From positions 10,195,001 through 10,259,000 of the forward strand of contig OX485807.1 of assembly GCA_950295325.1 (NCBI GenBank): a stretch of 64,000 bases of DNA, written 5' to 3'. The DNA comes from Polytrichum commune (Eukaryota; Streptophyta; Polytrichopsida; Polytrichales; Polytrichaceae). Positions 6,982-57,179 of the stretch are shown one piece after another. The position numbers and the translations under genes were made by a program. Positions within the stretch are counted from its first letter, which is position 1. The number at the start of each line of letters is the position of its first letter. The notes beneath the pieces are model-generated. The model saw nothing but the letters and a program-made list of their open reading frames with translations, ran no database searches and was not told the origin of the DNA.

Positions 6982-7350
6982 CCTACTCTCACTTCTTAAA
7001 TCTATAATATAGAGGGAGAAAACCTTCAAAATTGACATGACGAACAGTTGATCGATCTTTGAATGGACACTACGCCCAATTGACTTATGAGAGTTCCCAA
7101 ATCACCTACTCTCACTTCCTAAATCTACAATATAGAGGGAGAAAACCCCCGAAATCGACATGACAAGCAACTGATCGATCTTTGAATGGACACTACGCCC
7201 AATTGACTTATGAGAGTTCCCAAATCACCTACTCTCACTTCCTAAATCTACAGTACAGAGGGAGAAAACCCCCAAAATTGACATGACAAGCAACTGCTCG
7301 ATCTTTGAATGAACACTGCGCCCAATTGACTTATGAGAGTTCCCAAATCA
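6982..7350. repeat. Three tandem copies of a 123-bp unit at the 3' end of PLAC8-1
   Basis: Three near-identical units begin with CCTACTCTCACTTC at 6982, 7105 and 7228. Each ends with GAGAGTTCCCAAATCA, the last at 7350. The final TCA is the complement of the PLAC8-1 stop codon, so the array starts at the stop and runs into the 3' flank. The matching flank of PLAC8-2 (about 18960-19106) has a single unit, so the amplification followed the block duplication. Confidence 0.9.
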
Positions 7351-7788
7351 CCGTTCCATTTTGGTGGACTTAAAATCAGGTGCAGCTGTGGGATTCTGAA
7401 AGGTCGAGGCATCTGAATAAGCCGCAACGCCCTGCCGGTCTTTGAGTTCTCGACGCTCTTGACAAAGTGCGCAGCAGTGGCACAAGCAGTGCGTTAGCAG
7501 ATCGCTCGAAAATGGTGTAGCCTTAAGCTTGTACTTGTTCCGAAGCTTTGTCCTCCACTTGTAAGTGTACACGGACACAAGACAGCACGAGACATGACAA
7601 AGGAGTCCATAAATCAAGCCTTGGAGGAAACATGTGTCCACCCAACGGTTGCCTGCTGGATCACTTTCAGTTAGCCCTTCTGCAATTTCTCCAAACACTA
7701 CATACGGGCACAAGCATGTGAGGCAACACACCTCGCTATCTTTGCCACAATCACAAATCCCGGTCTGCCACTCCACTGTCTGTGCCAT
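7348..7788 (-). CDS. PLAC8 family cysteine-rich protein, copy 1 (intact)
   Basis: This is a 146-residue protein read from the ATG at 7788 (MAQTVEWQTGICDC). The PLAC8 family includes plant cadmium-resistance (PCR) and cell-number-regulator proteins, small membrane proteins tied to metal transport and organ size. The sequence shows the family start WQTGICDCGKDSEVCCLTC, then CLCPYVVFGEIAEG, a hydrophobic stretch GLIYGLLCHVSCCLVSVY, the basic KWRTKLRNKYKL, and the second cysteine cluster HCLCHCCALCQERREL. The usual CPC of the first cluster is CPY here. The frame stays open upstream of 7788 but has no ATG, so 7788 is the best start. A diverged copy with one nonsense codon lies at 19104-19541. Family assignment is firm; the substrate is unknown. 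Confidence 0.85.
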   Translation of the reverse strand: MAQTVEWQTGICDCGKDSEVCCLTCLCPYVVFGEIAEGLTESDPAGNRWVDTCFLQGLIYGLLCHVSCCLVSVYTYKWRTKLRNKYKLKATPFSSDLLTHCLCHCCALCQERRELKDRQGVAAYSDASTFQNPTAAPDFKSTKMER

Positions 7789-8343
7789 CCTAGCTAGCAA
7801 CGCGATACTATTTCGGAAATTGATCTGGCAGCTGGTGAAGTAACTGTGGTTCAATAGTTGTGCAGATACGGAGTAGAAAGAATTGTGGCGAGGATTCAGG
7901 AACTAGAGTCAATCAGATGTTTCTATCAAGGCGTTCCAGAACGAGTAGTACCCAATATGGGTTTTGTATATATGGAAAGCAAAGATGGTTGAACCCCTGG
8001 CAATGTGTATGTTGGCTACATAAATTTCTTCACAACGCGCCATAGTAGGTAGCCCACAGCTTTATGGTGCTGGTCAGCATCATCTCTGGCGGATATTTGA
8101 GAGTATTCCAATTTGTGAGTATATATATGGAACAAAGTACTACACCCTTTATGGTATTTAGTGTCACATGCGTAGTGGTGTCACTTACCCTTTTTTGAGG
8201 CGTGTTCTAGGTTGCGTTGTCGATTAACAAGTTCACGATAAGTTTCATCTCATGACACTTGACGGTCAAGTGCGCTTACTATCTTGGCATGAGTATGTTC
8301 AGTAGTGTTATGAGGTGCATGCCTATGTCACCCTTGGTCTACA

Positions 8344-12389: not shown

Positions 12390-12479
12390 ATGGCAAATAT
12401 CCAGGAGGCTTTCCGTGCATCAGAGGCAAAGGAGCTGTATTGCTTCGAGAAGGCTGCTGAAGAGACCTATCCTAGCTAT
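12390..12479 (+). other. Possible extra 5' exon of kinase gene 1
   Basis: ATG at 12390 opens 30 codons starting MANIQEAFRASEAKELYCFE and ending PSY, directly followed by GTAAGT at 12480. The next acceptor (TTTTCCAG, 12777-12784) lies against the ATG of the main first exon, and the phase fits, so splicing would add 30 residues. Kinase gene 2 has a diverged match near 50105-50160, but both splice sites are lost there. It could be a real first exon or untranslated sequence. Confidence 0.45.
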
Positions 12480-12784: not shown

Positions 12785-15700
12785 ATGGCTTCCGGAAGTG
12801 GAGATCATTCCAGATCATGGGCGAAAAATTTGTTACATGACTCGCGAGCGAAAGTGGATGCAACGTTGGAGAGATTCTCCAGACACAACAGGACTGCAGG
12901 GGATCTATCTAGTGATGCTAAGGATTATAATAATATGTCAGAAGAGTCAAATTCCTCTAGTAGTCATCGCAACTATCTCCACACAGATCACCAGAACTCG
13001 AAATTGCAGCCTGCTACTTCAGTAAACTCGTTGGTGGCGAGTGCCATGAGTGAGATGATCACAGATTATGATGTCCGCATCAATGACCACCATTCTGCTG
13101 TTCACAAACTTGCTATGGCCGTCATGAACAAGCCGTAAGTGTTTCTACATGTGTGAAATTAATTACGTTACCAGTCCACTGCATAATGGCCTGGGTTGCA
13201 ATCATAGCCTCAATAAATAAAATCTTGTTGTACATGAAGACTTGGAACCATAAACAAGTAGGAAAAAGACAATTGTTGGCAAGAGTATGGAGAAATAAAT
13301 ATTTGACCTCTCTGTTCTACAAGTGACTATTGTACCGCTTCTGAAATACAAGTCCCATCATGCTTTGCGAACATTTATTGTGGTAATGGTCATCAATCAT
13401 TACTAAAACTGGTATTGGAATGTATGATTTCACAATATGTGTATGCTTTGTGCAGACAATAATTAGATTTTGTAACTGTTTGAGGGCATGGGTCTATACT
13501 GGAAATGATGCTGAGATGTACTGAGCTTCTGCAGATCATTGATATTGAGATCATTTAAAGTAGGTATAATCAAAGAAATTCTCCTGCAGTTTACTGGTCA
13601 ATACCTCAACTTGTCAATTGGGATGTTTTCTTTGTGGTGAATTTTCAGGAAAGAAGCAAAGTCAGCCGTAGAAGCTCTGGAAGCTTATCTTGAAATGCGC
13701 CAGGATGCAGTCAAGCAGCTTCAATCACTTAGGGTTAGGATCTTTAAAACACAACAAACCTTATCTTGTTCAAATTGTGGGAATACCCAGGTTAAGATTG
13801 ATTGTGTATATCTGTTGAGATTTTGATGTTGGGAGGACATCAACTTCTGCGCTCTGTGTCCTAATGCAGTACCAGTTTAAATCTTTTCTTGGAAGTATAA
13901 CTTTCTTCCATATTTAAAAATTTCAGGAATCCAGGTGATATAGTCTGACGTGAGTAACAATTGATAAGTCAGAGAAGATTGTGCACTACTAATAATATGG
14001 AAACTACAATATCTGCTCTTGAAAGTGCCAAATAGCTTTCTCACTTGTGTAAACAATGATTTACCCTGAGAGACATGCTCTCTCTAAAGGAGGTTATGCC
14101 TAGCAAAAGCGCTCAATGAGTTGTATGCATGATTGGTTGGATTGACAGGTGCTGGAAAACTTGTTCGCAATATGTGGAGAAGACTCCAAGTTTCGAGAGA
14201 CTCTTGCACTGAGGTGTGGACAGGATTTTGTACGATTAGTGAAGAGTAAAGTAAGTACCTACTTCATTAGTGTGCATTCAGACATACATGCATATGGTTT
14301 TCAGCTATTCTCAATTCGCAAGAGCTATGTGTTGTTCATATACTTATATTACATTATTTGTGAGTTCAAAGGTCATTCACGGTGCCCTCAGTGCTCACTC
14401 CTATGTTGGGTTTAATATTTTGTCTGTCAGTCTAGAATGTTTGCCACAACATATCAGGAATTTATAGTTGAAGTGCTAGAAATGTGTTAATACTAGTAGC
14501 TTGATAGAGTTAGGGCCAGTTTAGACTACGGTGAGGAAGTGCACCGGTCAATCAACAATTTCCACACAAGACATGGCTATTTGAGGCCATGGTTGACATG
14601 GGTGACAGTTGCTTGGAAAATAACCACAAAAAAGAAAGAATGAAAGAAAGAAAGAAAAGCCTCAAGTTGGAGAACTCCCCTAGCAAAAAGTGTTGCCACA
14701 CTGGCAGCCATGTCAATTTTCATCCATGCTTGAAGTTCTCCACCGGAAAAGTCTTGGGCATAGTGTAAACCCCGGCCGATGAAGAACCCATTTCGTAGTC
14801 AATCATATTGCTTCAATCTCCTAGAATTCTTGAATGGTGCACTTCTTCATTGTAGTCTAAACCGGCCCTCAAATAGAATATAGCTTGTATATAGATACAA
14901 GATTATGAGTAAATTCCAAATACTTCATGGACCAGGAGAGTTTGGGAAGTTTTTTGTTTTTCAAGGATCTTTATTGAAGAGCAATACAAGTTTTCTCTAC
15001 TTACCACTTGAATGGTATCATAGAACAAAAAACAAAATATTGGGGCAAAATTGGTGGCACGGCCAGTAATTTATAATCTCTCTCGATGACTCTCAACTCC
15101 TCCAGACTGCTGGCATGCTCCATGTGATGGACTATTTGATCAAATGTCTAGCAGGAAGTCTCTCAATGTCACAGGAGTTTTATAATTACTCCTTGTACAG
15201 AATGTGTACAGAGTGTGCTCAGGCTCCATAGGGCATGTTCCTTCCTACCTAGTTATGAGGCAAAGGAAAACATTATATCCACAAATTCATGTTTTACCAT
15301 GTGTACACCTACCTCAGTGGAAGTTGATAATTCTGTACTTATTTTGGTGTTCTCTTATTTCCAGTCACAGGAGCAAGTGAGGGACAAATTCCTTATTCTG
15401 CTGGATACATGGCAAGAAGCATCAAATGGCGGAGATGGTCGATTTCCACAGTTCTTCAGGGCATGCAAGGACCTTCAGGTAGGAATAACAATGCTCAATG
15501 TCTCTATGGTCATTTCCACTGTTGGTCATGGTGTATAGGTGAGTGCACAGTATCAATGATCAACATCAATAATGGCACCAACAAACCAGTCAAACATTGA
15601 TATTGGGTGGGTATCTCAGGGTGAGATTCTTTGCATACCTGAATTATTACTTGGGGTCAATATTATTCTAAACCATATTGATATTAGGGCAATTTTACTT

Positions 15701-18418
15701 AGGTATGACGATTCTTGCAGGGAATATAAACCAGAATGGTATTGATAATAAAATATCCTCAAATACTCATATCCTGTTGGTATCAAAATGTGGAATCCTC
15801 ATTATAGATGCCCGAATTGTATGAGAAAAAAAACTTATACCAGTCCAACATTGGTCATGACAGCCAGGCTGCCATCAAAATATTTCACTGTGATACTCTA
15901 TGGTGTTTTTACTGAACATGTTTTTTTGTACTGGACCTCATGAGGGAGACCAAGTTTAGATAACTTTGCGCCATGTCAAGGCTAGGCAAGTAAATATCAT
16001 GCACACATATTCATAATATATTGATTTCACTGTTTATGTGATTGGCAGTTTGCTGGCATCCAATTTCCTGCTCGAGCGGATGTCATGGGTCCTCAATTTA
16101 ACTCCATAGCTGATAACCCTGGACCGACAATACCAAGGAGGTCAGAAAGTTTGTAAATTTCTAGGGCCACAAATCTTCTCTGCGTAGTGCTATGCTATTT
16201 TACTTTATGATACTAAGTGACATGAGCTACCATAGGTCAGCATGATACGCCCTGCTTGTCTTTAGAGAATTCATTACTTTATGAAACCACTAAAATACAT
16301 GGTTTGAGTCAATTCCTGGAATAGTACAGTAACTTAATGGTCTTTAAATTTTTACAGTATATTTCCAGGCCGGTTACTTCTGTCATAAGGTCGACTTACA
16401 CACTGTCTATTTTTGACAAAGTTTTTGCAAGTTTTTGACATTTGACACCCAAACACTTGCACACAAAAAAAAATGCACATCAATTGTCACACCCAATTTA
16501 GAATTTGACATGTAGTGTGCCTTGTGAAGAAAAAAACCCCACGTCAATTGACATGTTAGAGATTGAAATGACACGTACCACTAGGTATGTGACATTGAGG
16601 TGACAGTTCTAAAGAAATTGTAGATGCCAATTGACATTCAACAATTGTTGCCCTTGGCATGTCTCAGTTCAACAGATCTACCTGAAAACATTTTGAGTAC
16701 ATTAGCTGACGCATTACTGCCAAACGATCAGAAGGTTTGCATCCCTACCTTGACATTAACCTAAATTACTTAGTTCCTTGTATCTTCTCATTTTAAAATC
16801 TGGTTGAGGTAAAACAAGCCTCTCTTCAATCCATTGTTTGGTTGTCTGCCAGATATCAGTTTCAAATCAGCGGCGTCCATATACTTTTTGCAAACTGTAT
16901 ACTGCACCGCCTAAGGACTACCTTGAATCTGCAGTAAAATCCTTGGAAGATGCTGAAAGAATTGCAAGCAGATTTTGTATTTATCAGCATCAGTGTCTTC
17001 ACATACTTGATGCTCTTACAAAGGTTGTGAAAGAAGCAAAGGCAGAGGTCGACTTGTATTCATATAAAGACAAAGGCAGTCTACGTCATCGTATTTGCGA
17101 GAAAAAATGTATCGAAATCTTGAGGGTACTCAAGACACTCGTCGATGAATGTTGCGATGTTCATAATTATGGCTGGCTGCAAGCCGCTGTCATACTGGGG
17201 GATGTGACTGAACATCTTTGGTTCTTTCTTAAGGAATTTGAGTTCTACACGACACTGCTAATGAGAAACAGCCACCCGCGGGAATCATTAGCTGATCAAA
17301 TTATAGATGAAACTGGTAGCTTTGGAGAGCCTGACAGTTGGATGAACACAAAAGCTGAATCCGATCGAGAGGCACTGTTGGAAAAAGCAGAAGACTTACT
17401 ACGGTCAGAACATTCAAGCGTCCAAGAAATTGAACTTGCAACCTACTTGGCGGGAAGATTGGGAGGTAAATCACAACTACTTCAAGTGGATTATAAAGAG
17501 TTGAAACGACGGCCTGAGCAATTAGGAGGTGGCGCTTCAGCCTATGTGTACAAGACCTCGTGGCTTGAGAGGACTTTTGCCGAGAAAGTTTTCCAGGTCG
17601 GCAGGCAACAAGACCTATCTGATTTCGAGCATGAGATGTCAAGTTTGGCGGGGTTATCCCACCCACATGTTGCGCCCATGCACTGCTACGCGACTGGTGA
17701 GAGGGAGTGTTCCCTCGTCTTGGAGTTAATGGAAATGGATCTATCTGGATATATGATTTCGAAAAGGTCGTACACCAATACTAGGGTTCAAGGCACATCT
17801 CCATTTAATCTGCACGAAGCTCTGGATATTATGATTCAAGTCGCGGAAGGCATGTGCTATTTACGGAGGAAAAACATCGTTCACAGGGATCTAAAGCCCA
17901 AAAACATCCTAGTCAGAAGGGTAAAATCAGAGTTCGTAGATGGAGACCAAGAAGGTGTGCGTGTCAAAATTTCGGATTTAGGGCTCTCCGTGGTTAAGGA
18001 ATTGAGCACCACGTATCACATTACGATGAACAGAGGCACGAGTGTTTGGATGGCACCAGAGTTGATTGAGTTCAATAATCGCAATGAAGATCGCGTCAGG
18101 TCTCCAGACTCTGCCAAATCACTCAAATATCCGTATGCATGCGATGTTTACAGCTTCGGAATGGTGTGTTACGAGGTTCTGACAGGACAAGAACCTTTCT
18201 CAAGTCACGTGGGGGGAAGAGTTGAATTGAAACACAAAATCAAGGAGGAATTTGTACGGCCAGAGATACCTGAAGGTTATCCCAAGGCCCTGACCTCTTT
18301 GATCCAAAAATGCTGGAACAGCAACCCCACCCAGCGTCCAAGGATTGAAGACATTTGTAAGGAGTTGAAGTTTCAATTGTGCCTTCTTGTGACAGGTCAA
18401 TTGAATACTGGCGACTGA
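12785..18418 (+). CDS. VHS domain - HeLo/DUF1221-like - protein kinase fusion, copy 1 (intact)
   Basis: Seven exons with GT-AG borders join in frame: 12785-13134, 13649-13733, 14149-14250, 15365-15478, 16049-16140, 16668-16734 and 16853-18418, giving 791 residues. Residues about 83-228 form a VHS domain like plant TOL (TOM1-like, ESCRT-0) proteins: LVASAMSEM, VLENLFAICG, KFLILLDTWQEA and FPQFFRACKDLQFAGIQFP. Residues about 290-410 form a helical region resembling the DUF1221/HeLo bundle of plant MLKL proteins. The kinase domain follows: glycine loop GGGASAYVYK (about 495), lysine in FAEKVF (515), HRDLKPKN (614), DLG (645) in place of DFG, GTSVWMAPE and DVYSFGMVCYE. Unlike Arabidopsis MLKLs, which lack key residues, the Lys, HRD Asp and DLG Asp are present, so activity is plausible. 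VHS domains bind ubiquitin and sorting signals; MLKLs act in immunity. The joint role is inferred. A 30-residue 5' exon at 12390-12479 may be added. Confidence 0.85.
14513..14868. mobile_element. MITE in intron 3 of kinase gene 1
   Basis: The 356-bp element starts GGGCCAGTTTAGACTACGGT and ends with the complement of GGGCCGGTTTAGACTAC. The inverted match runs about 40 bp and includes GAAGTGCACC. Flanking triplets TTA and TCA fit a 3-bp Harbinger/Tourist-like duplication. Intron 3 of kinase gene 2 lacks it (753 versus 1114 bp), so it inserted after the block duplication. Relatives lie at 19755-19997 and about 21425-21690. Confidence 0.75.
15510..15870. repeat. Insertion in intron 4 of kinase gene 1
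   Basis: Intron 4 is 570 bp here and 232 bp in kinase gene 2. The flanks align and about 340 bp is extra. It begins after 'atggtcat' near 15515 and homology resumes at 'catgacagcc' near 15865. The ends carry 'ttggtcatg' as a direct motif. No clear inverted ends or coding region are seen. Confidence 0.5.
16400..16650. repeat. Insertion in intron 5 of kinase gene 1
   Basis: Intron 5 is 527 bp here and 284 bp in kinase gene 2. The extra 243 bp lies between 'ggtcgacttacacac' and 'cccttggcatg'. It is rich in TTGACA/TGTCAA pairs and CAATTG, hinting at a diverged foldback MITE. I could not fix its ends. Confidence 0.45.
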
Positions 18419-19103
18419 TGCAGGGCTTAAACTCCAAGATGCAGAGTAGGCTAAGAACCGAACCTTATTTTTACATCTTTAAGTGTAATCACTCTGCATC
18501 ATCATTCACATATCATTTGATTATAAAGCAATAGTAATTGCTGCATTCTGTCTACATTCATTCCAAGCAGAAGCATCCATCATAGTCGTCTCTTGACACA
18601 CTTGCTGCAACATATGAAGATCAATTGTGTTGCTGAAATACAAACAAACAAAACATTCATGAAGGATACATGAGAAATGAAAAGCAAGCCCGGAGGCCCT
18701 CTGTGACCTGAAGGTCCCACAAATGAAGCTGCCGCTCGTATGGTACACCTCCTCATCATTCATGGTACCTACTTGGCTCCACTCTCGAGCCTTAACCCCC
18801 AAGGCCCACATCTTAATAATCATCATAAGGTGAGGTGGCAGCTTGAGTTTGAAAGCTCTCTTAACAACGTCATGACTATTTTTGAGTCTTTAGCCACTCA
18901 CTTTGTTGTCATTTTTTCACTTTTAGTTGCGGGTAAAGATTCAAATGAAAGCTATGCAAATCCAAAGAGCCTAATCTCACTTCCTAAATCCAAGATAAGA
19001 TATTGAGGGAGAAAACCTCAAGAAGTTGACATGAAGAACGTGAAGAGCAGCTGATTGAGTTTTGAATGATAACTGCACCCAAGTGGCTTCTCTAGTTCTC
19101 AAA

Positions 19104-19541
19104 TCACCGTACCATTTTGGCGGGCGTAACATCAGGTGGAGCCATAGGACCCTCAAAGGTTGCACCTTCTGATGAATGACCCGCAACACCCTGCCGGACT
19201 TTGAGTTCTCGATGCTCCTGACAAAGTGCGCAGCAGTGGCACAAGCAGTGCGTTAACAGGTCGTGCGAGAACGGCGTCCCTTTAAGCTTGTACTTGTTCC
19301 GAAGCATTGTCCTCCACTTGTAAGTGTACAAAGCAACAACACAGGATGGGAACTGCCAAAGGAGCCCGTAAATTAATCCTTAATTGAAACATATATCCAT
19401 CCGACTGTTAGGATCACTTTCAATTAGCGCATTTGCAATTTCTCCAAACGTTACACATGGGAACATGCATGTGATGCAACATATCGTGCAATCTTTGCAA
19501 CACTCACAAATCCCGGTCTGCCACTCCACTGTCTGCGCCAT
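19104..19541 (-). pseudogene. PLAC8 family gene, copy 2 (one nonsense codon)
   Basis: Homologous to PLAC8-1 over its whole length, from MAQTVEWQTGICECCKD at 19541 to the stop at 19104. The frame is continuous except for one TAA near 19379, where copy 1 has CAA (FLQGLIY versus FN-stop-GLIY). That stop falls just before the hydrophobic segment. The C-terminal cysteine cluster HCLCHCCALCQEHREL survives downstream. The first cluster reads CCITCMFPCVTFGEIA, with FPC where copy 1 has CPY. One disabling change in an otherwise well kept frame suggests recent loss, or use of a truncated 54-residue product. Confidence 0.8.
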
Positions 19542-19754
19542 CCTAGCTAGCAATGCAATATTGTATGAGAAGTCCGTGTCCACCAAGCAGCTGGTTGATA
19601 ATTCGGTTCGAGTATTTCGTAGTTCGGTGTTTGTCCAGATATGGAGTAGCAAGAATTGCGGCAAGGATTGAAGAACTAGATTCAGATGTTTCTATATATC
19701 GAGGCTCGGCATATACATCGGCGAAAAACGATCACGGTTACTCCTGGGTGGTAA

Positions 19755-34123: not shown

Positions 34124-37100
34124 CTATGGGGGGTCTAGTGTTTGGGGCAGTGGTTGGTGGTTTTCTATTCTTCTTTTGTGTAGGAGGATAGACATGGCAT
34201 ATTTAATAGCGATAGTATTGATGTTTTTAAAGGTATTTTTAATGATAGGCATAGGTATTTTAAATTTATTTTCAAGTGATTTCATTGAAGGAATGTGTGT
34301 AGTGGCTCTAGCGCCTGCGGTGATTATAATAAGGGGGTCAACTTTCCATCCTCTAGCAGCAATACTATCAATTAATGGTTTGTACTTGTTATTTTTTGCT
34401 TCGAGTGTTTCTGGAGCGAATCTATCATTACAGTATGTAAATTCGAGGAATTGTATGGTGAGGTTGGGGTCCAAGTCTGTGGGGGGGTCATTTTGGTATG
34501 GTAATCCTCTAACACAGAGGATGTCAGGTCTAAATCTGGAGTTACAATGGCATCTTTGTGTACCGCATGTGCAAGGGAGTAGCCAATTGGGAACGGTGTT
34601 TTCCTGGGGTGTATTATTGAAAGTGCCAACATTCATGAGAGTATAACATCTAGATTTCTCAGATGAGATTAGTAGTTTCCTAATTCCCCATATTGCTTTG
34701 TTGTGTCTTTTGACGTGGAGTGAGTGTATATGTTGTTGTTTACACGTAAGTAGTACGTGTAACCACGTGTCCGGTTCGTATGAGGTGCAAATGGGGCATG
34801 TAACAGAGGGATATGTTTGTCTACCGAAGAACAATTGTTTTCGAGCATTGCCCATATATGTTCCTGTTCGGAATTTTATGAGACATGATTTTTGTTTATC
34901 CGTGACTTCCGGGTTTTCCCAGAATTCGTTAGAAAATTCTTTATCTATATCTGCATTTCCTGTCCATTTGTAAGTGTTGGGGGTTTGTGTGGCCATGTTT
35001 TCCAAGTTGTTTTCCCTATCGTATTTAATAATTTGTTTTTCTAGGAATCTAACGGGGCCTTTATCAGGAACGTCCGTCATTGAGGCCCAAATGTCCTTTT
35101 GGTAGTAGTATGGGGTGGCATGAGCATGCTCATATGGATGAATGGCAATTATGTGCTCTAGTTCTAGCCCTTCTTTTGCCAATTTGTCTGCTTGTTCGTT
35201 GCCGTCAATGTTGACGTGTGCTCTAACTTTGTATAGTGTGATTGGTTGTGTCCGGTTTTGAAGTAGTTGTACCATGGTGGCGAGGGTAATTTGGTCGGGG
35301 TGGCTATTGTGAAGTGTGGGGTGTTTAATTTGTGTGTTGAGTAAGTGTAATACGTTTAGACTGTCGGTAAATATGTATGCGGGTTCGTTTGGGTATAGTG
35401 TATTAATGGTTGTTAGTGTTTCATGTATTGCTATCATTTCTGCTCGTAGTATGTTTTGGTGTCCATGTAGTCTTTTGGAGATGTTAAGGCCCTTGGGGCT
35501 ATAGATTCCATAGCCGGCTCTTTCTCTTCTCCATATTCCAGGGTTAATTTCTTTGGGTTTCATGAAAGAGCCGTCTGTGTAGTAGCTGAATTGAGGGTGG
35601 AATTTTAGTGGTAAGTTAGTTTGGTAATCTGGGAGTTGTGGAATAGGTGTGTTATTATTTACGGGTGTGTTTGGATAGTTAGATTTAGCCCATTTTTTGC
35701 TAGGGTTAATGGCGGTATTCACAGGAGTGGGTGGTGCAATTTGTGTGTGAATTTGTATTATTTGGAGGTTATTTGCTATGTTGGTAAGTTGATTCATTTG
35801 TTCGTAGGTACCGATGTGATTGTTTTGGTGGTGGATACAGAATATTCGTAATGTTGATAATTCTTTCCTCGTGATATTGAGTTCGGGGGGAATTGTGGGT
35901 TCTTCGTATATAATGGTGTCTGCTGCAAAGTGGGCAATGATGTGTGTGTCCGAGAATGGGCCAGTATATGGGTTAAAATTGTGGTACCAATCCATGTCTT
36001 TTGAAATAAGTATAGTGATTGTATTTGGATCGTTTTTGGCCGCAATGCGGGCCCAATGGATGGCTTGTTGTAAGTCTGTTGCGTTATGGGGGTGGGCGTA
36101 ACCAATTCCCTTCCATTTTTGGTCAAACGCTTTTCCTAGGGATCCAAATATTCTATCCCTGGAGAATGGTGAGTGGAATTAGGTGAATTGTATGGGGCAA
36201 GTAACTGGGATGAGAAGTATGAATGGTTGATATTGAAGGATGTTATTAGGAAGTCTAGTATTGGAGTTGGTATTGTGTATTGGGCTTGTTTAAGTGGATC
36301 GTTTTTTGGAATACGGTATTTATACCTTTGGTATAGCCACACGATTTCTATTTCAAATGATTGGGTAGGTGGTTCTAGACTATGTGGGGTATCTTTAGCT
36401 TGATGGTATTGTTTCTATAACCACAATAATATAGTTTTTGAGATGGTAATGAGGTGCCGACCGTTGTCTTCATATATGTGAGCGACGTCGAATTGTGTTT
36501 GGATAGTGTTAGTGTTTGTTTCGATGTCACTCTCTGGGTTGCATTCATTAATGGAGATATGTATCAATGGGATAATTGTGGTAGGGATAACGTATCTAGT
36601 GTCTCGTTGTTGTTCTATGGAGAAGTATGCATTGATGATGTTTGAGAAGTGTTTGTGTTGTCTTTTTGTATAATATTGGGTAAGTAGTTCGGTGTTGTAA
36701 CGACTAGTATATACGTCACAATAGGGGAATAAATCTCTTTGGGTGCGCCATTTGTTGTATGTATTATTATTTGGGGTAATCCATTGGCATAGATATGATG
36801 TGTCTTTTCTTTGTATCCCATTAGAATCTGTGAGTTGTCGTTGTTTGTGGTCAAGTATTGTGTGTATGGGAAATTTACGGGGGTTTTTAAGCATATTATT
36901 GGGAGGTGGGGGTAGGTGGGGGACCGGGGGGTTCGGGGGGTTCGGGGGGTGTATAGGGGGAGTTGGGTGTTGAAGAAGGATGTTGTGGTTTACTATTGTA
37001 TAATCATTTTTTAGGGTTCGTGGAGGATAGTGGTGTGGGCATGGGAGTGGACATTCTCGGTGACAGGAAGGGTGGCAGAATAATTGGTTTGCGATGTTTA

Positions 37101-40100
37101 ATGCACTCTTTATAAGTTTTGTAGGGTTGGAGTGGTATATTTTAAAGTCATCTGGGTTCATTAGGGTGACACCGTTGGACATGGTTATTTGTTCTAATTT
37201 TATTATATTATGCAATAGAAGTTTTTGTAATAGTTTAAATGAAGTGTTGGGATTTAGGCCCTGTAGGTTTTGTGCTTCTTTCAACCATGCGGTTTCGAGT
37301 GGGGACGGATTTAATAGAAATGTATCTATTGTGCTTTTTAGGTGGACTCCAGCTTCATGTTTGAGTAGGAATAATATTCTGGTGATAGGTGATCTAACGC
37401 AGTGGTGGTATTTAATGTGGGTTATTTCTTTGGAGCCTCCAAATTTAGCTAATATAAATTGTGTCAAACCATAATAGATTTCGCCAAGTCTACCTTTGTC
37501 ATTGAGGGCGTTTTGTAGTTGTTCTCCAATACAGCGCAGGTAGGCATTTTGTAGTGAGAATGCTTCAATTCCGAATAGATCATGTGGAAGTTGTGTAGCA
37601 ATATTAGATGTACATTTCAATAATCCGCATATTGTCTTGTGGAGTACTATAATCTTTTTGTCGAGTTTTTTGATGGCCGGAATAGAGTATGGTATTGCGT
37701 AAAAGCTATAGGCTATTCTAGCACGTATGACTGTGTCCGCCATGTTGATTTTTTGCTTCATGGTGGCTAGGCATGCTACGAGGGCTTGACATTGTTTGAT
37801 GATTTTTGCTGTAGTGGTGTTTATTTGTGTTTTCCATTTAAGTGAAGGTGCGAGGTTTATTCCAAGATAAGTGTATGGTTCGTGTTGGTCTAAAACTGGA
37901 ATTTGTTGGTTTCTATAATTTATATTAGTAGATTGGATCAAGGCTTTGAATGTTATGGGATTCATTTTTGATTTATTAGGACATCCGGTCACTGTGCATT
38001 TGGGTATTCCAAGGTCCATTCCTGCCCATCCGCAGAATTTGTCTAATTTATTTAGTTGTACTTGTAATGATTTTAGTTTGTTAGCAATAGCTGCCAAGTT
38101 ATCTGCATATGCTGCGGATGTAATTTTTTCTTTAGATGTTCCGAAGGTGTATCCATTATCACCTTGGTGTAGCCATCTAAGGAGGGGTTCTAAAAATATT
38201 AAAAATAAGTATGGGCTGAGAGTGTCTCCTTGTATTGTACCTCTTTGAATGGGAATAGGTAGGGTTTTACCAAAGTGTTCTCCCGTAAATATGGTAGATG
38301 ATTGTGAGTATATATTCCCGATGAGGTTTATGGCGTCAGCTGGATAGCCCAGGTCCTTCATTATGGCTAAAAGTCTTGCATGGTCAATGGAGCCGAAAGC
38401 ATTTTTGAAGTCGATGTAGAGGATGTATATATCTTGGTTCATGAGTCTAGCATCTTCTAATGCTGCAATGAGGATTTGAAGTTGCCTAGATGTTCCTGTT
38501 TCAGCTCTAAATCCTTCTTAGCTGTCATGCAATATTTGGTATCTTTCCCCATAAGCTGAAAGGATAGATGTTAGTGTGTTTGTGTATAATTTATATATGG
38601 TGTTAGCTAGTGCGATAGGTCTGTGGTTGGTAAGTTTTGACGGGTCACCTTTCTTATATAGTAAAATTGTTAAACTGGTTTCCACGATGCGGGAATTTGC
38701 TTTTGTTTGTAGCAGTGTTTGAAGAATAAATAGAGTAGTTTGTGAAATCGTGGGGGCATATTTTTTAAGATTGAATTAGGGATTTTGTCTGGGCCCGGAG
38801 CTTTGTTGTTGCCTAGGTTTTTAAGGCAGAAGTCGTATGTTTTTTGGTCAAAGTATGTGTGCAGGGGAATTTGGGGTTCACCACGTTGATCGATTGTAAA
38901 TCCTTCTAGGTCGTGCCATGGGTATTGCCTAACACCACATGTGTAGTATGGTGGGTGAATATTATGGTAGTGACATGTGGGTACTGTTGGGCGGTTACTG
39001 ATGGATTGTTGGATGTGTATTTCTTTTGTAATGTCTTCAGGGCTAGTTATGATATTGTTTTGTCTATCCGTGATGGAGTCTAGGGGGGAGGTTTCGGAGT
39101 GTTTGAAGACTTTCCTATTTATATTTTTGAGGTTTTTTTCATACATTTGTCGGTATTTTGATACAGCTTTAAGAATACAGTCTTTGGTATATTTTGTGGT
39201 GATTTTTTTGGCGTTTTTATTAGCAGTTTTTACGATGGCAGCTATGATGTCTATCCATTCATTTGGAGGAGTGGTTGTTGTGGATGGATGTGGAATTAAC
39301 ACATTTTGGTGATTTCGGATTTCATTTAGAATAGGGTGAGTTTGCCAGTGTGGGTTGTTTTTTGTAATGTATACAGTTTTCCTAATAAGGTGATATGTTT
39401 CAAGGTGTTTTTTCCATTCTTTAGATAGCTTTCGTGGTAGGAAGCCACCTTGATGTGCAGTTTTGTTCGTGAGGGATGGTATTGGGGCTGCTTTGCAGGT
39501 TTTTTCAATGGTTTCAGAGATTTTCTCTACAATATTGTCTAGTGTTTCACAGGCTTCTTGCCATTGATCAGGGTTGAGGTGGTTGTGGTCCTCTAGTAAT
39601 TTGGTTAGTTCGTTTAGTTGCGGGGAGTATGTTTCGAAAAATTCTATATTGAATTTTTCTAAGTTTTCCGGAGGGATTGGGTTTAGTATTCTGGTTGGTG
39701 TGATATTCGTGGGGAGTAGGGGTCTAGCTATAAGTGTGTTTTGGGGTATGTGCAGAGTGACTGGGTAGTGGTCTGAGTTTAGATTCATGTCTGTGTTTGT
39801 TGTGGAGGTGAATCTATTATTATCTGGTGAGTTGATATAAAAGCCGTCTATAAGGCTGGTTGATGTGTAATTATAGCTGCCTTGTCTAGAGAGGGTAGTG
39901 TCCGTAGGAATATATTCTAAATTGAGGGTTGTGGTGAAGTTTTTCCATTGTATGTTTTCTTCTTGTGGAGGTGTGCTATTGTTATGGTTTTGTCTACCAG
40001 TGAGTGTAATGTCTCGGTTAAAATCACCACATAGGATGTGCGTGTGGTTTGGATGTGCAATGATTTGATTAGTGATTGCGGTTTTGAGGTACGGAATGAG

Positions 40101-41606: not shown

Positions 41607-41612
41607 TTGGTG
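41440..41612. repeat. Duplicated GGCCGAGGCC box in the ORF2 leader
   Basis: TTTGTGGCGAGGCC followed by GGCCGAGGCC occurs at 41434-41460 and again at 41577-41604, about 140 bp apart. Both are GC-rich islands in AT-rich DNA. In ORF2 sense they encode ASA(Y/S)RPRHKN twice, and the upstream one carries the first ATG. They look like an internal leader duplication. Confidence 0.6.
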
Positions 41613-41859
41613 TTTTGTTTGGTGTTTTATAAGGAGTTTGGTGAATATTCTTATTTTTGTATTAGTTGTGAGTAACCTTTTAGTTTGTGTGAGCGTCTTT
41701 TTATTGTGTGATACCGGTTGTTTATTTGTCTGTGTGTTGTTTATTGTGTGTTTAATGGGCGTTTTTGTTTTTATTTTATTTATTTGTATTCTTAGAGTGG
41801 TATTGGTAAGTACTATGATTGTTTTGTTTGGTTTTAGAATGTGTGTTGTGAGGTTTTTA

Positions 41860-42335
41860 TATATATCATTTAATAATACTATACGGTATTTGTATATATG
41901 TTTGTTGTATTTTGTATGTAAATATAATTTTATATTATATGTTTTTGATATTACGTATGTTAGAATTAGCCTTGTCCGTATAGTGTTGAAGAATACTATA
42001 CGGTGTTTGTATTGTTTTTTATTGTAATTTATATACAAATCTATTTTTATTTTATATTTACTTGTTGTTTTGTATATAAAGTTTTGTTTTATACGTATAG
42101 TATTTAATAATACACTACGGTGTTTGTATTTTATATATAAGTATATTTTTATTTTATATTTATTTGTTGTTTTGTATATAAATTTTTGTTTTATACGTAT
42201 GGTATTTAATAATACTATACGGTATTTGTTTTTGTGTTTTGTATAGAAATATACTTTTATTTTATGTTTTATTGAAGTTACGTATTTAAAAAATCGTTGT
42301 TTACTTTTAGTATTTAGTAATACTATATGGTATTG
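41860..42335. repeat. Five-unit minisatellite between LINE ORF1 and ORF2
   Basis: The phrase ATTTAATAATACTATACGGT recurs in slightly changed form at about 41867, 41979, 42099, 42201 and 42309, so units are about 102-120 bp. Each is followed by AT-rich filler with 'tttttattttatat'. In element sense the array is open in the ORF2 frame and would encode a basic repeat (YRIVLLNTIRIK...). It lacks an ATG, so it is more likely a spacer. Confidence 0.75.
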
Positions 42336-42409
42336 GAATTTATTTTTGTTGAATTTTGTATAAAAATATACTTTTATTTTGTTTTTCTTTGTCGCTACGA
42401 ATGTCAAAA

Positions 42410-50095: not shown

Positions 50096-50606
50096 ATGTC
50101 CGCTGAAACGAAGGAACTTTGCTCGGAGCAGGCTGCCGACTCGGCCTATCCTACCTACCGACAAAGTTCATTTTAAGGATACCCCAATTGTCATACCATA
50201 GTCTCTGGATTTATTTGTCAACAGCTCATACGTTGCAGTCTTGCAGAGTATCGTGGATACTGAAGGAGGAGCATGGATGTTTTGAAGTTTATACACGATA
50301 CGAATCGCTCATGACTCTAGTGCTACTCCAATCAAGTTTTTCGGTTCTGAGTGGAAGCTAATCTGCACAGTCCAGCTTGGCACTCAAATTAATTATTCCT
50401 GATCATTTACGACAGCCAATACAGTGATATTTTCCATATGTCTTCCGGAAGTGGAGATCATTCCAGATCATGGGCGAAACATTGTATCCATATTTCACTA
50501 GCGGGAGTGAAAGCAAAGTTAAAGCGATTCTCTAAACGCAATATGACTGCGAGAGATCTATCTAGTAATGCTAAGGTTTATAACGATATGTCAGAAGATT
50601 CAAATA

Positions 50607-52656
50607 CAGTCTAACCTTGATAATATCACACCATCCGTTTCACCATAAAGTGTGATATAAACAAGGTGTGACATATTTGATAATGTCACATTTTGAAGAT
50701 TTGTGCATAATGTGATATTATCAAAAAAAAAAAGGTAGAAAATCAAAATGAAATTACAATGTCAAAAAAAAAAAAAACAAACACAAGACTTCAATGTTTT
50801 TGAATGTAAAATATAATTCAAAATTGTGAATAACAACATGAGCACATCACAATGTGTCATTGAGATCAGGTAAAGACCTCTCACTAGAGACAAAGAAGCT
50901 TCTAATGTCACATTGTTTTAGTGATGTTAAATGTCCAACACCAATTCTAATGAGTTTGTCATGGATGTTTTCCATTCCTAACAACTCATGAGTGTTGAAA
51001 ATCTGAGAACCTTGGCTAGCCATAAAATTCAAAACATCTTTAGCATATTTTTGTGCATCGCTTAGCTTCACTACTTTAGACTCATCATCATTGCTATTAA
51101 CAATCAATGGGTCTTCTTCCATGGAATCAAGTACATGTTCGCCATCTTGCACTAATTGCACAAGCTCCTCAGTAGAATATTCCACCTCAAAATCATCTTC
51201 ACCTTCCATGTTTATGTACTCTAAAGGACTAAGCTTTTCTATAGGCTTGCCTTCAACATCCAAACCCAAATTCAATGCGGCGATGAGATTGCCCAATTCC
51301 AAAGCTGCTTCCTCCATTTTGGACTTCATACGTTCATCAGAATTGTTGATATCTGCATTCCACGCTGCAGGCAATATGGCAGACTTTCTCCAACAATTTC
51401 TAATGGTTTGATCATCTAATTCATGCCATGCCGCCACACACCATAGCATTGCTTGAAATAGATCAACATTCAGTTTCCCCAAATCTTCATTTGAGTTATC
51501 AATTTGTTGCAAAGTCCAGGCAACAAGCTTGCGTTTATAGCACATTTTGAATGCTGCAATCACTCCTTGATCCAAAGGCTGAACAACTGAAGTCACATTT
51601 GGTGGAAGAAACAATATAGTGATATGGGAGAGTACAAAAGCATTAAATCCATCTATAACTTTTTTGACCTCACCATGAATATCATGGCTTCCTGCATTAT
51701 CCATAATAATGCAAATTTTTCTATCTTGCAATGCCATTCTTCGGTTCTCACTCTTCACCCAATGTGTAAAAGCATCACCATTCATCCAGGCTGAATTGTT
51801 AGAATAATAGTGTACTATACTATTTGGATCAAACTTCCGAGGAAAGCATCTGGGACGTGTTGATTTGTGAATGAAAACAAGCTTCAATCGCTCCTTCCCT
51901 GAGATATTAGTGCAAAGCCCCAATGTCACACGGTCCTTCTTCTTTTTATTTCCTTTTGCCTTCCCAATATTCAAAGTCTTGCAAGGAGAGGCTTTATAAT
52001 ACAAACCTGTCTCATCAAAATTGAAGATGTCTTCAGGATCTTACTAGATTTTCCTATGCGACTATTGACTATAGAAACAGTGAAGACCGTGCCACATATC
52101 TTGAGATTTCTACATTGCAAACCAATTGAACTAATTTAGCTTGAGTCGACACTACTCTGTACCAGCTCAGCTAAACCGTAGAACTTAACATCCTAAATTA
52201 CTTCACACAAGCTGAAACCCTCAAAGACACATAGGTGAACACATGTGACGGAAGGTGGGGTGCATAGAGGCCAAGAAGTCTTGGCAGCGCCGTCAAAGAC
52301 AACACCTTTGAGTGCCGTGTATAGACAACACCGTTCAGGGTTGGTGCACAGAGGCGGCTCATGACCCTTTGAATAACATTGCATTTATCACAGGGGTGGC
52401 TCATGACCCTTTTGGCTACTACAATATGTCCATCCAACCATCACATACAATCCATACATCCAACCATCACATACAATCCATCCATATTTGATATTATCAC
52501 ATTTACACTACGGATTTTGGAAAAAAATAGTGACATTAACAAGGGTGATAGGGATAATAACGAGGGAGTTTTACACTAAGAAAATCAGTTTCAAACTTTT
52601 AGGTGACAGTATCAAGGTGTCCCATTAACAAGGGTGACATTATCAAGGTTAGACTG
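50607..52656 (-). mobile_element. pogo/Tigger DNA transposon in exon 1 of kinase gene 2
   Basis: The 2,050-bp element starts CAGTCTAACCTTGATAATAT and ends with the near-complement ATTATCAAGGTTAGACTG. It is flanked by the TA duplication (50605-50606 and 52657-52658) typical of Tc1/mariner-pogo insertions. It encodes a minus-strand transposase remnant (50847-52040). The remaining 600 bp at its right side has no coding sense. Intact ends and a clean target site suggest a fairly recent insertion. Confidence 0.9.
50847..52040 (-). pseudogene. pogo/Tigger transposase, N-terminally truncated (DDE_1)
   Basis: The open frame begins at 52040 (DPEDIFNFDETGLYYKASP) right after stops and ends at 50847, about 397 residues. 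The catalytic triad is visible: D in FDETG, D in IIMDNAGSHD, and D in VVQPLDQGVI. The C-terminal tail ends HLTSLKQCDIRSFF, as in the family. The N-terminal HTH/CENP-B-type DNA-binding region (about 150-200 residues) is absent, so the element is probably non-autonomous by internal deletion. A remote 5' exon is possible but not seen. Confidence 0.85.
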
Positions 52657-55600
52657 TACCCTGAAAGGTCATGGCAACACTCCCCACAGAGATGAACAAA
52701 GCTGGAGACCGGGCTCTGCTACTTCAATAAGCTCGCTGGTGGCGAGTGCCATGAGTAAGATGACCCTAGATGACGATGTCCGCAGCGATGACTGCCATCC
52801 TGCTGTTCACGAACTTGCTATGGCCGTTATGAACAAGCCGTAAGTGTTTCTAAATGTGTGAATTTGATTAGGTTGCCAGTCCACCTCATGATGGCCTGGG
52901 TTGCATTTATAGCCTTAATACACATAAATCTTCTTTTAAAGACACTTGGAACCACAAGCAAGTAGAAAAAAGATAAATGAAATTCTTGGCAAGTGTATGG
53001 AGAAATAGGTATTTGACCTCCCTGTTCTAAAAGTGACCCTAGACTACTGTACTACTTCTTAAATGTAAGTCCCATCACGCTTTGCGAACATTTATTGTAG
53101 TAATGGTCATTTGTCACACCAAAACTGGCATAGGTATGTATGATTTCACAATGTGTGTATGCTTTGTCCGGACAGTAAGTAGATTCTGTAACTGTTTTTA
53201 GGGCAGGGGTCTATATTGGAAATGATCCTGAGATGTACTGGGCTTCTGCAGATCAAGAAAAGTGATATGATTTAAAGTAGGTATAATCAAATATTTTTCG
53301 GCTGTAGTTTACTGGTCAATTCCTCACCTTGTCAATTGGGATGTTGGCTTTGTGGTGAATTTACAGGAAAGAAGCAAAGTCAGCCGTGGAAGCTCTGGAA
53401 GCTTATCTTGAAATGCGCCAGGATACAGTCAAGCAGCTTCAATCACTTAGGGTTAGGATCTTTGGAAACAAAACAAACCTCGACTTGTTTGGAATGTGAG
53501 AATACCCAAGTTTAAGATTGATTGTGTGTATCTGTTGGGGTTTTGAGTGTTGGGAGAACATCAACTTCCTGTGTTGTAATGCAGACTCAGTACCAGTTTA
53601 AATCTTTTCTTAGAAGTATAACTTTCTTCCATATTTAAAAATTTCAGGAATCCAGGTGATATAGTCTGACGTGTGTAACAATTGATAAGTTTGAGAAGAT
53701 TGTGCACTAGAAAATCTCTATACTAAAGAAATATCTGTCCTCAAAAGTGCCAAAATAGGTTACACATTTGTGTAAAGATCAATTTAGCCTAAGAGACATG
53801 CCCTCTCTGAAGAGGTTATGCCCAACAAAAGTGCTCAATGAGTTGTATCTGTGTTCGGTTTGATTGGCAGGTGCTGGACAACTTGTTCACAATATGTGGA
53901 GAAGACTCCAAGTTTCGAGAGGCTCTCGCACTGAGGTGTGGGAAAGATTTTGCACGAATAGTGAAAACTAAAGTTAGTACCTACTTCATAAGTGTGCATT
54001 CAGAAATACATCCGAATGGTTTCAGCTTTTCCCTATTTCTAACAATCATGTGTTTCTCATATAGTTATGATATAAGTTTACAGCTTTCAAAGTTCATTTA
54101 GATCACCGGCTCCTCACTCCTAGCTTGGGTATAATACTGTGTCTGCCAGTCTAGAATGTTAGCCACGATATCTCAGGAATCTATGATTGAAGTGTTACTA
54201 ATGTTTTAATAGTAGTAGCTAGATAGAGTCAGATAAAGTAGTTTCTATATAGATACAAGATTATGAGTAGATTCTAAATACTTCATGGACCAGGAGTACC
54301 TTGGGAAGTTTTGTTTTTTTTCAATCTTAAGTGAAGTGCGTACAAGTTTTCTCTACTTACCACTTAAATGGTATCATAGAGCAAAAACAAAATATTGGGA
54401 GATAATAGGTGGCACAGCCTGTAATTTATAATCTCTCCCTCGATAACTCTCAAATCCTCTAGATAAATGCTGGCATGCTTCAACTGATGGACTATTTGAT
54501 CAAATGTCTAGCATGAAGTCTCTCAATGTCACAGGAGTTTTATAATTACTTCTTGTACAGAATGTGTACAGAGTGTGCTCGGGCTTCATAGGGCATGTTC
54601 CTTCCTACCTAGTTATCAGGCAGAGGAAAACATTATATCCACAAATTCATGTTTTACCATGTGTGCACCTACCTCATTGGAAGTTGATAATTCTGTACTT
54701 ATTTTGGTGTTCTCTTAATTTCCAGTCACAGGAGCAAGTGAGGGACAAATTCCTTATTCTGCTGGATACATGGCAAGAAGCATCAAATGGCGGAGATGGT
54801 CGATTTCCACAGTTCTTCAGGACATGCAAGGACCTTCAGGTAGCAATAACAATGCTACAATGTTTTTATGGTCATAATGTCTTGACAGCCATAACATCAT
54901 CAGAATATTTCTATGTGTTACCATGTGGTGTTTTTGCTGAAGATGTTATTTGTACTGGACCTCATGAGACAGAACAAGTTTAGATAATTTTGAGCATGTC
55001 AAGGCTGGGGCAATGAATATCATGCACACATATCCATAATTTATTGATTTCAATGTTTATGTGATTGGCAGTCTGCACGGATCAAATTTCCTGCTCGAGC
55101 GGATGTCAAGGGTCCCATATCTGATCCCATTGGACCATATATATCAAAGAGGTCAGAAAGTTTATAAATTTCTAGGGCCACTAGGTAGTGCTATGTTACT
55201 TTACTTTATGATACTAAGTAACATGAGATACCAAAAGTTAGAATGATACGTCTTGCTTGTTTTCAGGAAATTCGTTTATGTATTTGTTAATGAGCTCACT
55301 GAAATACGTTGTTTGAGTCCAATCCTGGAATAGATCGTTAATTTAATGGTCATCAAATTTGTACAATATATTGTCGGGGTTGTTACTTCTGTCATAAGGT
55401 CAACTTACACATGTTTTGTCCTTGGCATGTCTCAGTCCAACAGATCCATATAGAAATATAATTGAAAAAATAGCTGAAGCATTACTGCCAAACGATCAGA
55501 AGGTTTGCATCCCTACCTCGATATTGACCTAAATTTCTTACAGTTCCTTGTATCTGTCAATTTCAAATCTGGTTAAGTCAAAAAATCGTCTCTTCAATTC

Positions 55601-57179
55601 ATTCTTGGTTCGTTTGTGCCAGATATCAGTTTCAACAAAACGGCCTCCACCTTTTTGCAAACCGTATACTGCACCACCTAAGGACTACCTAGAATCTGCA
55701 GTAATATCCTTGGAAGATGCTGAAAGAAATGCAAGCAAATTTTGTATTTATCAGCATCAGTGTCTTCACATACTTGATGCTCTCATAAAGGTTGCGAAAC
55801 AAGCAAAGGCAGAGATTGACCAATATTCATATGAAGACAAAGGCAGTCTACGTCATCGTATTTGCAAGAAAAAATGTATCAAAATCTTGAGGGAAGTCAA
55901 GACACTCGTTGATGAATGTTGCGATGGTCATAATTATGGCTGGCTACAAGCCGCTGTCATACTGGGGGATGTGACTGAACATCTTTGGTTTTTTCTTAAG
56001 GAATTTGAGTTCTACAAAATACTGCTAATGAGAAACAGCCACCTGCGGGCTGATCAAATGAATGGAACTGGTAGCTTTGGAGGGCCTGACAGTTGGATGA
56101 TCACAAATGCTGAATCTGATCGCGAGGCATTGTTGGAAAAAGCAGAAGATTTACTACGGTCAGCAAATTCAAGTGTCCAAGAAATTGAGCTTGCAAAATA
56201 CTTGGTGGGAAGATTGGGAGGTAAATCACAACTACTTCAAGTGGATTATAAAGAGTTGAAACGATGGCCTGAGCAGTTAGGAGGTGGCGCTTCAGCCTAT
56301 GTGTTCAAGACCTTGTGGCTTGAGAGGACTTTTGCCGAGAAAGTTTTCCAGGTCGGCAGGCAACAAGACTTCGAGCACGAGATGTCAAGTTTGGCGGGGT
56401 TATCTCACCCAAATGTTGCACTCATGCACTGCTATGCCACTAGTGAGAGGGAATGTTCCCTCGTCTTGGAGTTAATGGAAATGGATCTATCTGGATATAT
56501 GATTTCGAAAAGGTCATACACCAATACTAGGGTTCAAGGCACATCTCCATTTAACCTGCACGAAGCTCTGGATATTATGATTCAAGTCGCGGAAGGCATG
56601 TGCTATTTACGGAGAAAAAACATTGTGCACCGGGATCTAAAGCCCAGAAACATCCTTGTCAGCAGGGTAAAATCAGAGTCCGTAGATGGAGACCAAGAAG
56701 GTGTACGTGTCAAAATTTCGGATTTAGGGCTCTCCGTGGTTAAGGAATTGAGCACCACGTATCACATTACGATGAACAGAGGCACGAGTGTTTGGATGGC
56801 ACCAGAGTTGATTGAGTTCAATAATCACAATGAAGATCGCGTCAGGTCTCCAGACTCTGCCAAATCACTCAAATATCCGTATGCATGCGATGTTTACAGC
56901 TTCGGAATGGTGTGTTACGAGGTTCTGACAGGACAAGAACCTTTCTCAAGTCACGTGGAGGAAAGAGTTGAATTGAAACACAAAATCAAGGAGGAATGTG
57001 TACGGCCAGAGATACCTGAAGGGTATCCCAAGGCCCTGACCTCTTTGATCCAAAAATGCTGGAACAGCAATCCCACCCAGCGTCCAAGGATTGAAGACAT
57101 TTGTAAGGAGTTGAAGTTTCAAATGTGCCTTCTTGTGACAGGTCAATTGAATACTGGCGACTGATGCAGGGCTTAAACT

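What the first reader, a model, noticed from the sequence alone, without database searches (positions are those of the whole stretch)
12785..18418. A VHS (ESCRT-0 type) domain fused to a plant MLKL-like HeLo/kinase
Seen: seven exons join in one frame and give VHS, then a helical bundle, then a kinase. The VHS part matches plant TOL proteins (LLDTWQEA; FPQFFRACKDLQFAGIQFP). The rest matches plant MLKL order (helical region, LSHPxV, ELMEMDL, DVYSFGMVCYE). Known: TOL proteins bind ubiquitinated cargo; plant MLKLs have a DUF1221/HeLo bundle and act in immunity. I know of no described VHS-MLKL fusion. Inference: an MLKL-type kinase recruited to ubiquitinated cargo on endosomes or the plasma membrane.
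Basis: partly seen in the sequence, partly recalled or inferred. Interest (0 to 1): 0.88.

Follow-up and report, generated by a model that had tools for sequence, protein, structure and literature searches.

The report
VHS domain fused to MLKL-like kinase
A plant-type gene, present here in two copies, appears to join a worn-down endosome-sorting (VHS) domain to a helical region and a probably active kinase related to plant cell-death kinases, a combination I found no description of and which may be an immune sensor.

Summary
The seven exons are real at the given coordinates: 6 of 6 introns GT-AG, one frame, 791 aa. The front is a divergent TOL/TOM1-type VHS domain (PDB 9rdc_C 3.4e-14; Pfam VHS 1.7e-5, below its cut-off). 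The back is a kinase whose nearest solved relatives are 6ka4 and 6lba, which I recall as Arabidopsis MLKLs (2.9e-36, 3.3e-35; next, TAK1, 4.8e-25). The middle is predicted helical, but DUF1221/HeLo was not detected. A second copy at 50438-57164 keeps the splice sites, has no internal stop, and its exons 2-7 differ in length only by multiples of three, but a DNA transposon sits in exon 1. This argues strongly for one gene. Two inferences weaken: the VHS lacks the helix-2 Trp found in 5 of 5 aligned reference VHS domains and no GAT domain was found, so ubiquitin-cargo recruitment is unlikely; and the kinase keeps its catalytic motifs, so it is not an AtMLKL-type pseudokinase. Best reading: a kinase fusion protein in which a degenerate ESCRT-0 domain is address or bait for an active MLKL-like kinase. 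No transcript or plant genome collection was available.

The parts
12785..13134 (+). exon 1: Ser-rich N-terminus (residues 1-80) and start of the VHS domain
   Evidence: homologous to 50438-50605 and 52668-52839 in copy B
13649..13733 (+). exon 2, VHS
   Evidence: 83 of 85 bases identical in copy B
14149..14250 (+). exon 3, VHS
   Evidence: 91 of 102
15365..15478 (+). exon 4, VHS (LLDTWQEA..FPQFF)
   Evidence: 113 of 114
16049..16140 (+). exon 5: end of VHS (to about 16093) and start of linker
   Evidence: 63 of 80 aligned bases; 12 bases shorter in copy B
16668..16734 (+). exon 6: linker; 67 bases, needed to keep frame between exons 5 and 7
   Evidence: 54 of 66 aligned bases
16853..18418 (+). 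exon 7: helical region and kinase, ends in TGA
   Evidence: 1461 of 1542
16919..17236 (+). four long predicted helices (residues about 293-398), candidate HeLo-like bundle
   Evidence: mean pLDDT 54.6; no HeLo profile or fold match
17333..17458 (+). two predicted brace-like helices (residues about 431-472)
   Evidence: weak match to 6ka4 185-217 (134 of 5000 shuffles as good)
17516..18367 (+). protein kinase domain (residues 492-775); K of FAEKVF, HRDLKPKN, DLG, APE present
50438..57164 (+). copy B of the gene: exons, as analysed, 50438-50605 and 52668-52839 (exon 1, split by the transposon), 53367-53451, 53871-53972, 54726-54839, 55072-55151, 55436-55502, 55623-57164
50607..52656 (.). DNA transposon with DDE_1 transposase on the minus strand and CAGTCTAACCTTGATAAT terminal repeats, a TA on either side, inside exon 1 of copy B

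Best explanation
One gene (with a tandem paralogue) encodes a kinase fusion protein: a degenerate TOL-type VHS domain, a fast-evolving linker, a helical (possibly HeLo-like) region and a probably active MLKL-like kinase. Shown: gene structure, VHS and kinase homology, absence of the VHS helix-2 Trp, intact kinase motifs, frame preservation in copy B. Inferred: the VHS no longer works as a ubiquitin-cargo receptor but as an address or bait, binding endosomal or plasma-membrane partners, or pathogen factors that act on ESCRT-0; the kinase with its helical region then signals, perhaps toward defence or cell death.
For: Gene model. Copy B: GT-AG at the six homologous introns; 0 internal stops from the second part of exon 1 to exon 7; length differences of exons 2-7: 0, 0, 0, -12, 0, -24; exon 7 dN/dS 0.32, bootstrap 0.22-0.55. 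Exon 7 has no Met before residue 137 in copy A or 136 in copy B, and the only in-frame ATG in the open DNA directly before exon 6 or 7 (16624, copy A) has no counterpart in copy B. VHS. Kinase alone: 6ka4 and 6lba rank first of 82 PDB sequences at E<=1e-18 (best 60 shown). Trp to His in both copies. VHS changes amino acids faster than the kinase (about 25 of 354 against 14 of 728 nonsynonymous sites, p 7e-5; synonymous 11 of 101 against 18 of 196, p 0.68). Precedents: kinase fusion proteins in wheat immunity (PMC11153570 passages; PMC10260399 abstract); Pm13, an MLKL with intact catalytic residues (PMC10951266 passages); a plant TOM1 found near the bacterial effector AvrPto and affecting bacterial growth when silenced (PMC6305590 passages).
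Against: No transcript evidence. VHS dN/dS 0.63 has an interval of 0.32-1.52, so selection on the VHS is not proven. The helical part also evolves about four times faster than the kinase (p 8e-6), so fast change is not special to a bait. Exons 2 and 4 are 98-99% identical between copies, which suits a working domain. HeLo identity not shown. No immune role shown for this gene. VHS is N-terminal, its usual place in trafficking adaptors.
Confidence: 0.42

Rival explanations
1. The VHS is a working, ubiquitin-independent membrane or endosome adaptor (lipid or protein binding) that puts an active MLKL-like kinase on endosomes for trafficking control; no bait role.
For: VHS fold motifs kept in both copies, exons 2 and 4 98-99% identical. 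TOM1 VHS binds PtdIns5P (PMC7952518 passages). Mammalian MLKL goes to endosomes when ubiquitinated (PMC8816944 abstract and section 6).
Against: VHS accumulates amino-acid changes faster than the kinase; no basic excess in the VHS (K+R against D+E: copy A 20/21, copy B 24/23; 9rdc_C 21/18).
Confidence: 0.27
2. One reading: the VHS binds ubiquitinated cargo and recruits an MLKL-type executor to it.
For: TOL-type VHS similarity; TOLs bind ubiquitin through VHS and GAT (PMC12051064 passages).
Against: Helix-2 Trp replaced in both copies and 6 residues inserted beside it; no GAT hit.
Confidence: 0.1
3. Two genes, or a chance chain of exons: a VHS gene fragment followed by a separate kinase gene.
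For: No RNA data; in copy A an ATG at 16624 opens a frame into exon 6; a separate, unseen 5' exon for the kinase is not excluded.
Against: That start is absent in copy B; exon 7 lacks an early Met; exons 5 and 6, their splice sites and phase are kept in both copies although intron lengths differ by up to 361 bases.
Confidence: 0.09
4. Both copies are decaying duplicates; copy A is only still intact.
For: Copy B has a transposon in exon 1; other transposons nearby; dN/dS of residues 81-270 is 0.92 (0.51-1.88).
Against: Exon 7 dN/dS 0.32 (0.22-0.55), no stops or frameshifts in copy B downstream of the insertion.
Confidence: 0.12

Closest known systems
Arabidopsis MLKL2/MLKL3 (PDB 6ka4, 6lba; the MLKL names are recalled, the listing says F22L4.1 protein and Protein kinase family protein)
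   Same: Nearest solved kinase domains; a helical region before the kinase
   Different: No VHS, as recalled; fragments of their N-termini match DUF1221, this one does not. In the alignments both have Arg for the kinase Lys and have lost the DFG Asp, with HRD as HGE (6ka4) or HGD (6lba); this one keeps Lys, HRD and the Asp (as DLG)
Pm13, wheat MLKL-type resistance protein (PMC10951266)
   Same: Helical N-terminus plus a kinase with intact catalytic residues (passages)
   Different: No VHS described in what I read; its kinase is of the DLSV/LRR_8B type (section 13)
Plant TOL / TOM1 proteins (PDB 9rdc_C; species not shown, plant by recall of its motifs)
   Same: VHS domain with DTWQEA and FP-type motifs
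   Different: No GAT found; helix-2 Trp and the Asn of NCG replaced; kinase fused
Kinase fusion proteins of wheat immunity, e.g. Lr9 WTK6-vWA, Pm57
   Same: Kinase joined to an unrelated domain; bait role proposed for pseudokinase and vWA of Lr9 (PMC11153570 passages)
   Different: vWA instead of VHS; tandem kinases

Membership tests
Plant MLKL | kinase-like domain closest to known plant MLKLs | tested here: met
   6ka4 2.4e-36 and 6lba 2.1e-35 rank first, TAK1 follows at 9.2e-25; PDB only, no plant kinome compared
Plant MLKL | N-terminal HeLo / DUF1221 / MLKL_NTD bundle | tested here: inconclusive
   PF06760 not found while control fragments hit it; the copy B region gave only SPECT1 at 0.02, below cut-off; MLKL_NTD (cd21037) not available; four helices in low-confidence models; Foldseek 0 matches at E<=0.001; similarity to 6ka4 26-85 equalled by 17 of 3000 shuffles for copy A but 439 of 3000 for copy B, and to 6lba 29-77 by 257 and 950 of 3000
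Plant MLKL | brace helices between bundle and kinase | tested here: inconclusive
   two helices in the model; weak match to 6ka4 (134 of 5000 shuffles)
AtMLKL / animal MLKL type | pseudokinase (degenerate catalytic motifs) | tested here: not met
   K of FAEKVF, HRDLKPKN, SDLG, APE present (alignment)
TOL / ESCRT-0 | VHS domain | tested here: met
   9rdc_C 3.4e-14; PF00790 1.7e-5 and 6.4e-5, both below the curated cut-off
TOL / ESCRT-0 | GAT domain | tested here: not met
   no GAT hit at E up to 1 in the full protein; no positive control run
TOL / ESCRT-0 | ubiquitin-site Trp in VHS helix 2 | tested here: not met
   DW in 5 of 5 aligned references, His in both copies; 7 further VHS chains were not aligned; its role as ubiquitin contact is recalled
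Kinase fusion protein | kinase and unrelated domain in one polypeptide | tested here: met
   gene model, two copies; transcript not seen
Kinase fusion protein (resistance type) | confers disease resistance | not testable with these tools
   needs genetics

The most novel reading that the evidence does not exclude
An integrated ESCRT-0 bait: a plant fused a TOL-type VHS, since stripped of its ubiquitin site, to an active MLKL-like cell-death kinase, so that interference with endosomal sorting at the VHS directly triggers the kinase.
Probability: 0.25. Interest if true: 0.78.

Novelty: new variant of a known kind. Interest (0 to 1): 0.5.

Why it matters
If real, it hard-wires the endosomal sorting entry point to an MLKL-like kinase in one chain. 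MLKL and endosomes are linked in mammals by ubiquitination of MLKL (PMC8816944, abstract and section 6), and plant kinase fusion proteins are a growing class of resistance proteins (PMC11153570, passages). A VHS fusion would add ESCRT-0 to the list of integrated domains and give a direct handle on whether plants guard this step.

Tried and rejected
HeLo identity: Pfam on the whole protein and on three versions of the region (the copy B version gave only SPECT1, E 0.02, 15.0 bits against a cut-off of 38.4), phmmer and a two-sequence profile against PDB (three Rho-GEF chains at E 2.3, no MLKL; nothing at E up to 10), AlphaFold and Foldseek (best match G-CSF at E 0.53). None supports it beyond the helix layout. 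I do not call it HeLo.

Relatives elsewhere: no whole genome held. Viral contigs with exon 7 and with the VHS half: 40 and 93 pattern stretches, 0 relatives. Genome contigs with exon 7: 177 stretches, 1 relative, an Acidobacteria locus, 26% identity over query residues 223-495, kinase part only, not informative. These are viral and prokaryote collections, so absence there says nothing about plants.

Extra 5' exon at 12390-12479 (30 codons, in frame through a GT-AG intron to the ATG at 12785): possible, but the donor is absent in copy B; left open.

Indel test (5 of 5 coding indels multiples of three against 10 of 45 intron gaps, p 0.0014) is biased because the coding gaps were read from a protein alignment; I rely instead on exon lengths and the open frame.

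Literature: 10 searches. 'VHS domain' with 'MLKL' is in 2 papers, both on ESCRT by title, seen only in the listing; 'VHS domain' with 'protein kinase', 'Physcomitr' and 'domain architecture' in 0. The ENTH/ANTH/VHS survey of 84 genomes, Physcomitrella and Selaginella included, uses the word kinase once, for PtdIns-kinases (PMC3473312, passages); its supplements were not seen. A study of NLRs across plant lineages lists MLKL among NLR-associated proteins and holds no 'VHS' (PMC11218826, passages). Only open-licence papers were searched, and no plant sequence database was, so the architecture may already be annotated in UniProt or InterPro.

Full report
Observation. The exon chain of the finding is exact: seven exons, six GT-AG introns, 2376 bases, 791 aa and a stop. 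The two introns that join the halves are 16141-16667 and 16735-16852. Exon 6 (67 bases) is needed, since exon 5 ends in phase 2 and exon 7 starts in phase 0.

A second copy. blastn and tblastn of the gene against the window show a tandem paralogue at 50438-57164, 91.6% identical to 16648-18595 and 1461 of 1542 aligned bases in exon 7. Its six introns use GT-AG at homologous places. Downstream of a transposon in exon 1 it has no internal stop. Exon lengths differ from copy A by 0, 0, 0, -12, 0 and -24 bases (exons 2-7), while 5 of 6 introns differ by a number that is not a multiple of three (lengths). NG86 dN/dS (bootstrap 95%; residues 58-791, the part of copy B after the transposon): kinase 0.20 (0.09-0.42), helical part 0.42 (0.25-0.71), VHS 0.63 (0.32-1.52), linker 1.95 (0.64-8.3), residues 81-270 together 0.92 (0.51-1.88), exon 7 0.32 (0.22-0.55), whole 0.53 (0.39-0.74). 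So purifying selection is shown for exon 7 and the whole, not for the VHS alone. Exons 2-4 are 287 of 301 bases identical against 84-88% in introns, which argues for constraint there too, although local gene conversion is not excluded. Copy B carries a transposon of about 2 kb with a DDE_1 transposase (4.8e-36), matching ends and a TA on each side, in exon 1, upstream of the VHS.

One gene or two. A separate kinase gene would need its own start. Exon 7 has no Met before residue 137 (136 in copy B), at the end of the fourth long helix of the model. Directly upstream of exon 6 an in-frame ATG exists in copy A (16624) but not in copy B; none lies directly upstream of exon 7. An unseen 5' exon is not excluded. 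With kept splice sites and phases, one gene is much the likelier reading; RNA is still needed.

Domains. VHS: phmmer of residues 1-270 finds 9rdc_C 'Target of myb protein 1' at 3.4e-14, then STAM2 0.027 and Hrs 0.19; that 9rdc_C is a plant TOL is my recollection of the family's motifs. Pfam VHS reaches 1.7e-5 (A) and 6.4e-5 (B) on the trimmed domain, both below the curated cut-off; CID, of the same fold class as I recall, also scores (0.0042, 0.00044). In an alignment of both copies with 5 reference VHS domains (those printed, of 12 VHS chains listed) the helix-2 Trp of all 5 is His in both copies, with six extra residues beside it, and the Asn of NCG is Ile. VHS binds ubiquitin with helices 2 and 4 (PMC7952518 passages); that this Trp is a contact is recalled from Ren and Hurley 2010, which is not held. 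No GAT domain was found.

Kinase: nearest solved sequences are 6ka4 and 6lba (2.4e-36, 2.1e-35 for the kinase alone), then TAK1 at 9.2e-25, Roco4 and RAF. It keeps the Lys (FAEK), HRD and the DFG Asp (as DLG). In the alignments 6ka4 and 6lba have Arg for the Lys, no DFG Asp, and HGE or HGD for HRD. Intact motifs also occur in Pm13 (PMC10951266 passages).

Middle: four long helices and two shorter ones in the models (mean pLDDT 34.1 and 54.6), the layout of MLKL, but Foldseek gave 0 matches at E<=0.001 among 182 at E<=10. Pfam gave nothing for copy A and only a sub-threshold SPECT1 match for copy B (0.02). The Pfam control with fragments of 6ka4 and 6lba worked. A local similarity to 6ka4 around a QxQC motif is equalled by 17 of 3000 shuffles for copy A and 439 of 3000 for copy B; to 6lba by 257 and 950 of 3000. 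HeLo remains a suggestion.

Mechanism. Shown: structure of the gene, homologies, absence of the Trp, intact kinase motifs. Inferred: not a ubiquitin receptor; VHS as address or bait; kinase output. The bait idea draws on faster amino-acid change in the VHS than in the kinase (p 7e-5; but the helical part changes as fast), on duplication, and on precedents in kinase fusion proteins and a TOM1 protein near the effector AvrPto. The rival, a ubiquitin-independent trafficking adaptor, is nearly as good.

Organism. Not given and not determined; plant is inferred from the TOL- and MLKL-type matches and the introns. 'Non-seed plant' could not be tested.

Verdict. It is a new domain combination as far as the searches named in Tried and rejected go.

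Noticed in passing
50438-57164: Tandem paralogue of the finding's gene, with a DNA transposon in exon 1; not mentioned in the finding.
   Followed up: yes
12390-12479: Possible extra 5' exon of gene A: 30 codons in frame through a GT-AG intron to the ATG at 12785; donor not kept in copy B.
   Followed up: partly
7348-7899 and 19104-19691, minus strand: PLAC8-family gene (PF04749 5.2e-25) and similar open stretches just downstream of gene A (about 80% blastn identity around them).
   Followed up: partly
34124-42428, minus strand: Large retroelement frames with reverse transcriptase and RNase H, strong base skew over about 32-44 kb.
   Followed up: no
60709-63757, minus strand: Copia-type element: RVT_2, SH3_retrovirus and an integrase remnant in 61945-63144.
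   Followed up: no
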